Origin: Nitrospira sp. MA-1 | Lineage (GTDB): Bacteria > Nitrospirota > Nitrospiria > Nitrospirales > UBA8639 | Direction of reading: 5' to 3' | Length of the DNA: 64,000 bases | NCBI GenBank assembly: GCA_032139905.1 | Contig: JAQJDB010000002.1 | Span: forward strand, 186,001 to 250,000 | Shown: in pieces, positions 54,177 to 60,021 of the stretch | Numbering within the stretch: position 1 is the first letter of the stretch | Layout: each line of letters opens with the position of its first letter | Position numbers and translations under genes: made by a program | The notes under the pieces: generated by a model | Database searches by the model: none | The model's input: the letters and a program-made list of their open reading frames with translations, nothing else | What the model was told of the DNA's origin: nothing

Positions 54177-54239
54177 ATGATCACCATGATTGAAAAGCTC
54201 GGGTCACGTAATATTTATTTCATCACAAGGAAACAGATC

Positions 54240-55352
54240 ATGACAAAACTATTTGAGCCATTAACCATAGGTTCCCTTACCTTACCCAATCGCATCATCA
54301 TGGCACCGTTAACACGGATGCGATCACAGCAGCCAGGAAATGTTCCTCACGAGCTCAATGCCGAATATTATGCTCAGCGTGCGTCAGCCGGTTTGATTAT
54401 TTCTGAAGCCACGCAAATCTCCCAACAGGGACAAGGCTACCCTGGTACCCCTGGCATACATTCCCCTGATCAGGTCCAAGGCTGGAAACTCGTGACCGAT
54501 GCCGTGCATAAAGCTGGCGGCCGGATCTTTCTTCAACTCTGGCATGTGGGGCGTATTTCTCACACATCTCATCAACCCGATGGTGCGTTGCCGGTTGCGC
54601 CCTCTGCTCTTGCTGCGGAAAACAGCGTGACGTATACGGTCGATTGGCAGGAAACGCCGATTGGGGTTCCGCGCGCATTAGAAACAGATGAAATTCCGGG
54701 AATTGTTGGCGATTTTAAAGCAGGGGCTGAAAACGCCAAAGCGGCGGGTTTTGATGGCGTGGAAGTCCATGGAGCCAATGGGTATTTACTCGATCAGTTC
54801 CTTCAGGATGGTTCCAACTCACGCACTGACCACTATGGTGGATCCATTCAGAATCGTGCCCGCCTGTTGTTGGAGGTTGTCGATTCCGTCATCGAAGTTT
54901 GGGGGAAAGATCGTGTCGGCGTGCGTTTATCTCCCTTTAACGCGTTTAACGGCATGAAGGATAGCGATCCCATCAAGCTGTTCACGTATGTCCTTGGTGC
55001 GCTGGATTCACGAGGCGTGGCCTTTGTCCATTTAATTGAGCCACGTTCATAATTCGCGGGCATGCAAGACGATAGCCTTGAAGACCAACCACACACCGCC
55101 TCAATATTTCGTCCTGCACTTAAGACCATCCTGATTTCCGCCGGAGGCCATACCCCTGTTTCAGCCTATGAATATGTAGAAAATAATTTGGCTGATGCTG
55201 TCGCGTTTGGAAGGCACTTTATTTCCAACCCAGACCTCCCGGAGCGTATCCGCCAGTCCTCACCTCTCACCCCCTATGATCGTGCCACTTTTTATGGCGG
55301 AGATACGAAGGGATATACCGACTATCTTCCTCTGAATGAACAGGCGGCCTAA
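54240..55352 (+). pseudogene. Old Yellow Enzyme-family ene-reductase with an in-frame stop
   Basis: The first 271 codons read as a normal FMN-dependent NADH:flavin oxidoreductase: FEPLTIGSLTLPNRI, MAPLTRMRS, EATQIS, LQLWHVGRIS (active-site His), GFDGVEVHGANGYLLDQF and RTDHYGG. A TAA at 55050-55052 then interrupts it. The same frame continues to 55352 with TILISAGGHTPVSAYEYV and ADAVAFGRHFISNPDLPERI, the last barrel strands and phosphate-binding site of FMN. Without readthrough the protein lacks part of the FMN site. ATG 54240 (ribosome site AAGGAA) is the conserved start. Confidence 0.87.
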
Positions 55353-57711: not shown

Positions 57712-58422
57712 TCACATGGGCAGATGAATCGGAGATTCCAAAGATGAAAGAACGGGCGGCAGGCCCTCAACCATACGGCGTTGTTCAGTTGAACGAAGGC
57801 GGATTTTAAAGATGACGCGGCGGCTCTTCTCGCGATTCACCCTGCTATTCCCATCGTAAATCAAATCTTGCCTGCCCCGGCCGGATGCCGACGTCATGGT
57901 TTGGAAGCACTGATAGGCGGACGGCTCTTGAGCTTCTATGGCCTCTAACCCCTTCACCATTACGGCCAGGGATCGTTCCTGGCTTAATTTTAAATTAAAG
58001 GCATCGTCGCCGCGATCGTCGGTGTGGCCTTGGATGGCCAGGGAATCGATCTTGTCGCGTAAGGGACCGCATAAAACTGCCGCGTAGAACGGCATCGCCT
58101 CCTGTACAAACTGAACAGCGTCATGAGAAAGAATACTTTGGCCGAACTCAAAGGTGAGTTTATTGTCGGGGACGACGATGAGAAGCGTGAGCGGATCTTG
58201 AGGATCGGAATCCAGCGAAAGCCCTAAACGTTCGAGATGGTCCCGGAGGGCTGCCTGCACATTCTCTTTGTGCTCCTGTAATTCCGATTGGGCTTCGGAG
58301 GAGGTCTGAGTGATAAAGGCTGCAAAGAGCAGAATGAAGATCATGGCCAGTGAAGTCATGAGATCGATGACCCCGCCCGTCGTGGGAGAACTGGCGTTAT
58401 CCTGATCCATCGGGGAACTCAT
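57712..58422 (-). CDS. ZorB/MotB-like protein with OmpA peptidoglycan-binding domain
   Basis: 236 residues. One N-terminal membrane helix holds GGVIDLMTSLAMIFILLF with an Asp at 20 in the position of the proton-carrying Asp of MotB/TolR. A short linker follows, then an OmpA_C domain (SLAIQGHTDDRGDDAFNLKL, SQERSLAVM, NREKSRRVIF). This is the ZorB/MotB architecture: an ion-driven stator fixed to peptidoglycan. It overlaps the ZorA-like gene by four bases. Confidence 0.86.
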   Translation of the reverse strand: MSSPMDQDNASSPTTGGVIDLMTSLAMIFILLFAAFITQTSSEAQSELQEHKENVQAALRDHLERLGLSLDSDPQDPLTLLIVVPDNKLTFEFGQSILSHDAVQFVQEAMPFYAAVLCGPLRDKIDSLAIQGHTDDRGDDAFNLKLSQERSLAVMVKGLEAIEAQEPSAYQCFQTMTSASGRGRQDLIYDGNSRVNREKSRRVIFKIRLRSTEQRRMVEGLPPVLSSLESPIHLPM

Positions 58423-59645
58423 CCCGTCCGCCGGTGTCGGGCTAACCCCGGCCGTTTTGACCAGGAGCCGATTTTATCAAAAAAGTTAATCATGGAAGGA
58501 CCACGGGAGTTGGCAGAGGGTTTCCAGAGAGGTGGGCGCTCTTCGAACGATGTTTCCGTTTGCACGCGATGAGGCCTGTTATCCTTAAGCAATATGGTGA
58601 GGTCTTGAATGGCCCCAGTCAATTCGTTCAGGGGACCATGCAGGGTGTCCGTGATGACGCGTGGAAGTTCCGCTACCGTTCGTCGGATTTGAGCATGATC
58701 CTCCTTCTGCAATGTCATTAAGGTCTGAATCGCCGCTGTCAAATCCGCGGTAGGACCGATAAGTCCGTTTGTCCCCCATCCAAGAAGGTGTTCGCGGTTT
58801 TCCTCTCTTGAGGGGGAAGGATCTTTCGGGGATTGGCCTTGCTTAGCTGTGAGTTGCTCCAACATTTGTTCCATAGTTTTTCGAGGGAAGAGTTGATCGA
58901 TGAGATCGAGGTATGCGTGATGGGCATTCATCAGGCGGGCAACTATTGGTTTTTCAAGAAAGGAGAAGATATTCGCCACGATCAAGCCAACGATGGACGT
59001 CAGGAACTTTCCGGCCAATCCGTTAATTAGACCCTGAATTCCTACAATTTCACTCCCATCGGCATGAAGCTTGCCAAGGCCGATAAACAAAGCGAGGAAG
59101 GTCAGGAGAAGCCCGAGGCTGGTGACAAGTGAAGGAAATTGCCTATAGAAAGTAAGATTTACGTGCTTGGCGATGAGGGTTTCTTGGGTAAATACCTCTG
59201 CAGCAGGTTTGGTACTGAATATACGCGGGTCCACGAACCAAGGGACCTGTTCCAGAATCAGAGTCATTCGATATTGCGCCCACGGGCTGCGAAAGATGGG
59301 TTCCTGTTGCATTCCCGCATCGAGCGTTTGGATGTCCTCACTGTCCAGCCGGTTTGAAGAAGATGCAGCCCGGTCAGCATGGGTTGAGTACCCCGTTCCG
59401 TGGTGGTGAGTGAAGCGATCGCGATCCATCTTCCTTCGCTCATTGGCCAGAGCCTGTAACTTTGGATGGATTCGCTCGAACGCCCGTTGAACCGAAGCCG
59501 TCTCCTTTCGCATCTTGAGGATGTGCCACAGAAAAAAAAGCAGAATCCCACCAGACCCCAGCCAACTCAGCAGGGGGCTGTGCGGGCCTCCCAGGAAGGT
59601 CACGTCACGGCTTAAAAACTCCCATAGACCAAACGTTGAGGTCAC
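58419..59645 (-). CDS. ZorA/MotA-ExbB-like protein with long cytoplasmic tail
   Basis: 408 residues with membrane helices at about 25-45, 171-193 and 206-230, the last two forming the MotA/TolQ/ExbB core (PSLVTSLGLLLTFLALFIGL; FLTSIVGLIVANIFSFLEKP). After the last helix comes a ~175-residue cytoplasmic tail, partly helical (LTAAIQTLMTLQKEDHAQI). That tail is the feature that separates ZorA of Zorya anti-phage systems from flagellar MotA. No ZorC, ZorD or ZorE gene is adjacent. Confidence 0.8.
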   Translation of the reverse strand: MTSTFGLWEFLSRDVTFLGGPHSPLLSWLGSGGILLFFLWHILKMRKETASVQRAFERIHPKLQALANERRKMDRDRFTHHHGTGYSTHADRAASSSNRLDSEDIQTLDAGMQQEPIFRSPWAQYRMTLILEQVPWFVDPRIFSTKPAAEVFTQETLIAKHVNLTFYRQFPSLVTSLGLLLTFLALFIGLGKLHADGSEIVGIQGLINGLAGKFLTSIVGLIVANIFSFLEKPIVARLMNAHHAYLDLIDQLFPRKTMEQMLEQLTAKQGQSPKDPSPSREENREHLLGWGTNGLIGPTADLTAAIQTLMTLQKEDHAQIRRTVAELPRVITDTLHGPLNELTGAIQDLTILLKDNRPHRVQTETSFEERPPLWKPSANSRGPSMINFFDKIGSWSKRPGLARHRRTG

Positions 59646-60021
59646 CTTGTCCTCAGCCTTTCAGTAATTATTGTCCACGGCTTATGCATGGCAGAGTTGT
59701 TGATTGTCCAAATGAGATACGGCAGTCTCAAGTTTCGTGCCGTCATTAAACCAGGTAGAAACTCATAGAATAATGGAAATTTTGCGAATGTTTGGGAACC
59801 TTGAGAAGGGCGTTGGGCAAAGAATGCCTCTTGCCTCGGCAAGTTGGTCTTCAAAATAAAAGGAGAAATGTTTGAGAAACAATGTAGGAGCATCCTAGTC
59901 GTTGACCTGTGGTTTGAACCTTTTTCCAAAAGGGGTAGAATACCACCTCTGATTCCGTCAAAAATCCTCCGTTTAAAATGCGTCTTTTTAACGGAATAAG
60001 TAGGACAATAAAGGAAGTAAT
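59646..60021. other. divergent intergenic region
   Basis: About 375 bases between the ZorA-like gene and the hybrid kinase. No gene or strong hairpin was recognised; promoters for both genes should lie here. Confidence 0.45.

What the first reader, a model, noticed from the sequence alone, without database searches (positions are those of the whole stretch)
57712..59645. ZorA/ZorB-like motor pair without ZorC/D/E
The pair has the ZorAB features (MotA core with long cytoplasmic tail; MotB core with OmpA domain and membrane Asp) and a four-base overlap, but neither helicase nor nuclease partner is beside it. The neighbours are an MDR enzyme and a hybrid kinase. Either it is an orphan Zorya remnant, a defence system with separate effectors, or an energised envelope complex of another kind.
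Basis: partly seen in the sequence, partly recalled or inferred. Interest (0 to 1): 0.6.

Follow-up and report, generated by a model that had tools for sequence, protein, structure and literature searches.

The report
Effector-less Zorya-type motor pair in Nitrospira
Two adjacent genes encode an ion-driven, cell-wall-anchored motor that descends from an anti-phage defence machine (Zorya), but nitrite-oxidising Nitrospira relatives keep it as a stable two-gene unit without any of Zorya's DNA-attacking partners and with a much shortened arm.

Summary
Window 58419-59645(-) encodes a 408-aa ZorA-like protein and 57712-58422(-) a 236-aa ZorB-like protein, overlapping by ATGA. By profile, solved-structure sequence search and fold search the nearest known family is ZorAB, not MotAB, TolQR or ExbBD, which the genome has besides. 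It is not a remnant. The pair is found in 51 of 56 genomes of five Nitrospirales genera, at conserved length (about 385-460 aa), under purifying selection, with every ion-path and peptidoglycan-binding residue tested invariant or nearly so. No third gene accompanies it across about eight lineage-specific neighbourhoods. The genome has no ZorC or ZorE, and no ZorD beyond generic SNF2 helicase matches. Rooted trees and AU tests (p<0.001) nest the pair inside type I Zorya, next to complete ZorABCD operons of Nitrospirota whose ZorA is 612-703 aa. So this is an effector-less, short-tailed derivative of type I ZorAB. Most likely it is an ion-driven 5:2 motor anchored in peptidoglycan and co-opted for a constant cell function; that role and its client are inferred, not shown. 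A minimal defence that uses unlinked or host effectors is not excluded.

The parts
58419..59645 (-). ZorA-like motor subunit, 408 aa, GTG start; three TM helices, cytoplasmic domain between TM1 and TM2, short tail
57712..58422 (-). ZorB-like stator/axle subunit, 236 aa; N-terminal TM with Asp, OmpA-type peptidoglycan-binding domain
58419..58422 (-). ATGA overlap of the zorA-like stop and zorB-like start
   Evidence: the same -4 overlap in most relatives
58995..59156 (-). TM2/TM3 region of the A subunit holding T182 (59100-59102) and S217 (58995-58997), which align with E. coli ZorA T147 and S184; invariant in 38 sequences
58422..58880 (-). Short C-terminal tail of the A subunit (residues 256-408): helices to about residue 355, then predicted disorder
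58363..58365 (-). B subunit D20, aligned with E. coli ZorB D26, invariant in 37 sequences
57796..58155 (-). OmpA-type peptidoglycan-binding domain; T134, D135, N143, R150, R201, R202 invariant
59646..60021 (-). Upstream intergenic stretch between the pair and the divergent hybrid kinase; no Rfam match, promoter-like hits no more than chance

Best explanation
A two-gene ion-driven 5:2 rotary motor of the ZorAB family, derived from a type I Zorya system by loss of ZorC and ZorD and shortening of the ZorA tail, and kept as a chromosomal gene pair in Nitrospirales. Five A subunits would surround two B helices. Ion flow past B D20 and A T182/S217 would turn the A ring while B is held in peptidoglycan, and the short helical tail would pass the motion or state to a client encoded elsewhere. 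Shown: family, residue conservation, descent within type I Zorya, absence of a linked third gene, absence of ZorC and ZorE genes, helicase-core matches only to ZorD, purifying selection, wide retention. Inferred from homology: 5:2 assembly, ion drive, wall anchoring. Inferred only: a constant non-defence role (for example envelope or cell-wall state transduction) and an unlinked client.
For: ZorAB is the nearest family by profiles, by sequence against solved structures (only ZorA chains match A) and by fold (ZorA E 2e-7 to 9e-5; TolQ 0.18, ExbB 0.36, MotA 2.8; ZorB chains rank first for B). Ion-path and wall-binding residues map one to one on E. coli ZorAB and are invariant or nearly so. In trees of A, of B and of both, the pair is one clade joined to Nitrospirota type I Zorya (100/99 for A+B). 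Effector-bearing Zorya as a clade without the pair is rejected (AU p=0.00036), as is effector-bearing type I alone (p=0.00027). Retention: 51 of 56 genomes of genera g1, g5, g12, g15 and g19. ZorC-type EH_Signature is found in six of 295 Nitrospirota genomes (five over cut-off) and in no genome with the short pair (positive control met). No constant neighbour. dN/dS about 0.07-0.13 for the core and 0.06-0.14 for B. The neighbourhood is metabolic, not a defence island. The genome also has MotAB, TolQR and two ExbBD.
Against: No function was tested and no client is known. The root of the tree rests on distant outgroups, and only 14 effector-bearing Zorya were sampled. Whether the pair is inside or sister to the three Nitrospirota type I systems is unresolved (p=0.385). 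It is dispensable: a complete genome of the same genus (G008) has an unrelated gene in its slot. One genus (g19) seems to hold copies transferred from another family, so inheritance is not strictly vertical. The tail evolves faster than the core (dN/dS about 0.2-0.5).
Confidence: 0.62

Rival explanations
1. Minimal or split Zorya: still anti-phage, with an unlinked or shared host nuclease, or by ion leak and depolarisation when the wall is disturbed.
For: The sensing and ion parts of ZorAB are fully kept and the family descends from defence systems. In published type I Zorya, defence needs ZorB's wall domain and ion flow (PMC11890865).
Against: The same paper reports that defence also needs the ZorA tail and each component; here most of the tail is gone, ZorC and ZorE are absent and the only ZorD-like hits are generic SNF2 helicase cores that do not track the pair. 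Presence is near-universal and the neighbourhoods are stable, unlike defence genes.
Confidence: 0.22
2. Auxiliary flagellar stator or other motility motor.
For: The pair and flagellar MotB co-occur: in genomes at least 95% complete, 33 have both, 3 the pair only, 8 MotB only, 20 neither (Fisher 1.7e-7).
Against: Three genomes 97-99% complete (G061, G069, G079) have the pair without MotB. The association is confounded with clade and genome size. A is not close to MotA, the genome has its own MotAB in a flagellar locus, and no flagellar gene is a constant neighbour.
Confidence: 0.1
3. Envelope energiser of the TolQR/ExbBD type acting on an outer-membrane client.
For: A PMF-type 5:2 core and an OmpA domain.
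Against: B is a peptidoglycan-binding ZorB, not a short TolR/ExbD, and no TolA- or TonB-like arm is a constant neighbour. Tol and Ton motors are present elsewhere and match A far worse than ZorA does.
Confidence: 0.04
4. Decaying remnant of a Zorya operon.
For: ZorC and ZorD are missing and the tail is short.
Against: Constant length, invariant motor residues, low dN/dS and 51 of 56 retention.
Confidence: 0.02

Closest known systems
Type I Zorya ZorAB of Nitrospirota (L153, L154, L155)
   Same: 44% (L153) and 32% identical A cores, 36-38% identical B; shared TM motifs, same ion and wall-binding residues; sister or parent group in the trees
   Different: They stand in ZorABCD (L153, L155) or in ZorABC up to near the contig end (L154), and their ZorA is 612-703 aa; here there is no C or D and the A subunit is about 400 aa
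E. coli / Shewanella type I ZorAB (PDB 8QYD, 8VVN)
   Same: Best fold match; T147, S184 of ZorA and D26 of ZorB conserved
   Different: 25% core identity; long tail, required for defence in the published type I and II systems (PMC11890865), mostly absent here
Type II Zorya ZorABE (PDB 8VVI; L109, L118)
   Same: Same 5:2 motor class; L109 shows that a ZorA of 420 aa can stand in a defence operon with ZorE
   Different: Separate clade; ZorA lacks the long N-terminal cytoplasmic part, so more of its length is tail; an HNH ZorE is adjacent
Flagellar MotAB, TolQR, ExbBD of the same genome (L001-L004)
   Same: Same 5:2 ion-motor superfamily
   Different: 18-24% core identity, different contexts, no ZorA-type N-terminal or tail parts

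Membership tests
ZorAB motor family | ZorA-type MotA core with conserved Thr/Ser ion residues | tested here: met
   T182->T147, S217->S184 of E. coli ZorA; invariant in 38 sequences; fold search
ZorAB motor family | ZorB with membrane Asp and peptidoglycan-binding OmpA domain | tested here: met
   D20->D26; T134, R150, R201/R202 invariant; fold
ZorAB motor family | Phylogenetic placement with ZorAB | tested here: met
   Zorya plus pair apart from MotA/TolQ/ExbB at 100/99; nested, AU tests
ZorAB motor family | Reaches curated NCBIfam ZorA/ZorB cut-offs | tested here: not met
   Best ZorA model 57 bits against 100; ZorB1 25 against 400. These cut-offs define NCBI's named subfamilies, not the wider motor family.
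Type I Zorya system | Long cytoplasmic ZorA tail | tested here: not met
   about 150 aa, ordered to about residue 355
Type I Zorya system | ZorC (EH_Signature) | tested here: not met
   none in the genome; positive control rings in other Nitrospirota
Type I Zorya system | ZorD (SNF2 helicase with Mrr-like nuclease) | tested here: not met
   only helicase-core matches, best at model positions 441-877 of 1071, at unlinked loci
Type II Zorya system | ZorE HNH nuclease | tested here: not met
   none in the genome; control G042 rings
Type III Zorya system | ZorF and ZorG | not tested
   not searched genome-wide; no constant third gene beside the pair
Anti-phage defence | Protects against phage | not testable with these tools
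   needs an infection assay
Anti-phage defence | Patchy, island-borne distribution | tested here: not met
   51 of 56 genomes in five genera, single copy, stable neighbourhoods, metabolic surroundings
Flagellar MotAB | Closest to MotA, flagellar context | tested here: not met
TolQR / ExbBD | Closest to TolQ/ExbB, with TolA- or TonB-type partner | tested here: not met

The most novel reading that the evidence does not exclude
An anti-phage rotary motor was domesticated early in Nitrospirales: a type I ZorAB shed its DNA-attacking effectors and most of its tail and became a widely kept, non-defence cell-envelope motor with an unlinked client.
Probability: 0.5. Interest if true: 0.8.

Novelty: new variant of a known kind. 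Interest (0 to 1): 0.58.

Why it matters
Known 5:2 ion motors serve flagella, Tol, Ton, gliding/type 9 secretion and Zorya, and ZorAB is treated as a defence part. A ZorAB lineage kept in most genomes of five Nitrospirales genera without effectors suggests that the motor can stand alone. It makes testable what ZorAB does by itself, which is hard to see in Zorya where the nuclease masks it, and how much tail a ZorA needs. It also cautions that ZorA/ZorB hits alone are not evidence of a Zorya defence system. No report of this was found in the open-licence library searched.

Tried and rejected
Remnant: rejected (selection, length, retention). Constant third gene next door: none; clusters other than A and B reach at most 35 of 83 loci once antisense ORFs are set aside, and the largest is a mixed regulator superfamily. 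Unlinked ZorD: a conserved SNF2 helicase matches the helicase core, but it is present in pair-less genomes and missing from several pair-bearing ones. Distal tail homology to long ZorA tails: only the tail root (about residues 240-268) aligns clearly; the rest gives weak, low-complexity helix matches and is inconclusive. Viral or plasmid carriage: A has no match in plasmids or in IMG/VR; B finds only distant relatives on plasmids; no phage match for the L153 ZorB. Upstream RNA or promoter: nothing above chance. Decayed pair in G008: no trace, the slot holds another gene.

Full report
Observation. Window 58419-59645(-) encodes 408 aa with a GTG start and 57712-58422(-) encodes 236 aa; they overlap by ATGA. 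Pfam sees OmpA in B (2.7e-7) and only 14 bits of MotA_ExbB in A. Genuine ZorA proteins also fall just short of that Pfam cut-off, so this is expected. PADLOC gives ZorB1 1.8e-39 and ZorA1 2.5e-20. NCBIfam gives ZorA models first for A, all below their curated cut-offs.

Nearest known family. Against sequences of solved structures, A matches only ZorA chains, and the best match of B is E. coli ZorB. The AlphaFold model of A (pLDDT 64, pTM 0.47) has TM1, a cytoplasmic domain with a small beta pair, TM2, TM3 and three tail helices, then disorder from about residue 356. Its only significant fold matches are type I ZorA (E 2e-7 to 9e-5); TolQ, ExbB and MotA follow at 0.18, 0.36 and 2.8. The B model (pLDDT 81) matches ZorB chains first. 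A T182 and S217 align with E. coli ZorA T147 and S184, and B D20 with ZorB D26; B T134, R150 and R201/R202 align with T143, R159 and R208/R209 of E. coli ZorB, in the region of the reported wall-binding residues. All are invariant in 37-38 sequences. That T147 and S184 are the ion residues is from my own knowledge; the Asp, the Ser/Thr ring and the wall-binding residues are described in PMC11890865.

Distribution. The organism belongs to Nitrospirales. The pair occurs once per genome in 17 of 20 genomes of the window's genus (the window's own included) and in 5/5, 14/15, 10/10 and 5/6 genomes of four further genera, 51 of 56 in all. A scan of 84,980 species genomes by short peptide patterns, which reaches close relatives only, found 43 loci, nearly all labelled Nitrospira or Nitrospirota. 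A and B stand side by side in 82 of 83 loci. Lengths are tight: A about 385-460 aa, B about 207-252 aa. dN/dS against close relatives is about 0.07-0.13 for the A core, 0.06-0.14 for B and 0.2-0.5 for the tail. This is not decay. It is dispensable, though: in the complete genome G008 an unrelated gene sits exactly between the flanking genes that carry the pair in its sister genomes.

No third partner nearby. Across about eight lineage-specific neighbourhoods nothing but A and B is constant. In the window the surroundings are metabolic and regulatory; the helicase-type PADLOC hits there are best explained by a RapA gene. ZorC (EH_Signature) is absent from the genome and from all short-pair genomes, while the same search rings in complete Zorya operons of the phylum. 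ZorE is absent from the own genome. ZorD-model hits cover only the SNF2 helicase core, at unlinked places, and do not track the pair. Type III partners ZorF and ZorG were not searched genome-wide.

Origin. A profile of the short A family over 295 Nitrospirota genomes found, besides the short pairs, only three other systems, all with long ZorA (612, 636, 703 aa) followed by ZorB and ZorC, and by ZorD in two; on the third no ORF of 180 aa or more follows ZorC before the contig ends. Trees of the A core, of B and of both join the pair to these with strong support, inside Zorya when rooted on MotAB/TolQ. A tree in which effector-bearing Zorya exclude the pair is rejected (p=0.00036). Without outgroup and long branches, effector-bearing type I as one clade is again rejected (p=0.00027). 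Whether the pair is nested in or sister to the three Nitrospirota systems is open (p=0.385). The simplest reading is loss of ZorC and ZorD and shortening of the tail, long ago, since the pair clade spans two families whose RpoB are about 80% identical. Genus g19 carries copies closer to the window's family than its RpoB predicts, so at least one later transfer is likely.

How it probably works. By homology it should form five A around two B, let ions pass at B D20 and A T182/S217, and turn while B is held in peptidoglycan. In the published type I and II systems the wall domain, the ion path and the A tail are all needed for defence. Here the first two are fully kept and most of the third is gone. 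A motor that keeps its drive and anchor but has lost its effectors and most of its arm is best explained as co-opted for another task, passing wall or envelope state or torque to a client encoded elsewhere. That last step is inference. Rivals are a split or minimal defence, and an auxiliary motility motor; the latter draws on a co-occurrence with flagellar MotB that is confounded by clade and genome size and broken in three 97-99% complete genomes.

Limits. No expression or phenotype data. Only 14 effector-bearing Zorya were in the trees. Other phyla could not be searched with the family profile. The literature check covers open-licence papers only.

Noticed in passing
window 54177-55352 (+): An old-yellow-enzyme gene is split into two ORFs (291 aa and 96 aa), while relatives (for example L010, L078) have one ORF of 391 aa at that place: frameshift, decay or assembly error.
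   Followed up: partly
L180:7750-9123 (G008): An unrelated 457-aa, outer-membrane-barrel-like ORF occupies exactly the slot where sister genomes carry the ZorAB pair; no trace of the pair remains.
   Followed up: yes
L109:10152-12948: Complete type II Zorya (ZorA 420 aa, ZorB, HNH ZorE) in a small-genome relative, next to what look like haem-synthesis genes.
   Followed up: partly
L153:2981-10418: Complete type I Zorya (ZorABCD) in a Nitrospiraceae genome that lacks the short pair; its ZorA core is the closest effector-bearing one to the window's (44%).
   Followed up: yes
genus g19 copies (for example L021, L028): ZorA of g19 is about 51-57% identical to the window's although its RpoB is no closer than that of g12 or g15, whose ZorA is only about 36-48% identical: likely an old inter-family transfer.
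   Followed up: partly
97 relatives: The pair and flagellar MotB co-occur strongly (Fisher 1.7e-7 in near-complete genomes), with three exceptions that have the pair only; confounded with genome size and clade.
   Followed up: partly
G000:C4:140787-142055: A conserved SNF2 helicase (open frame about 1,180 aa) common in Nitrospirales matches the ZorD helicase core; it does not track the pair.
   Followed up: partly
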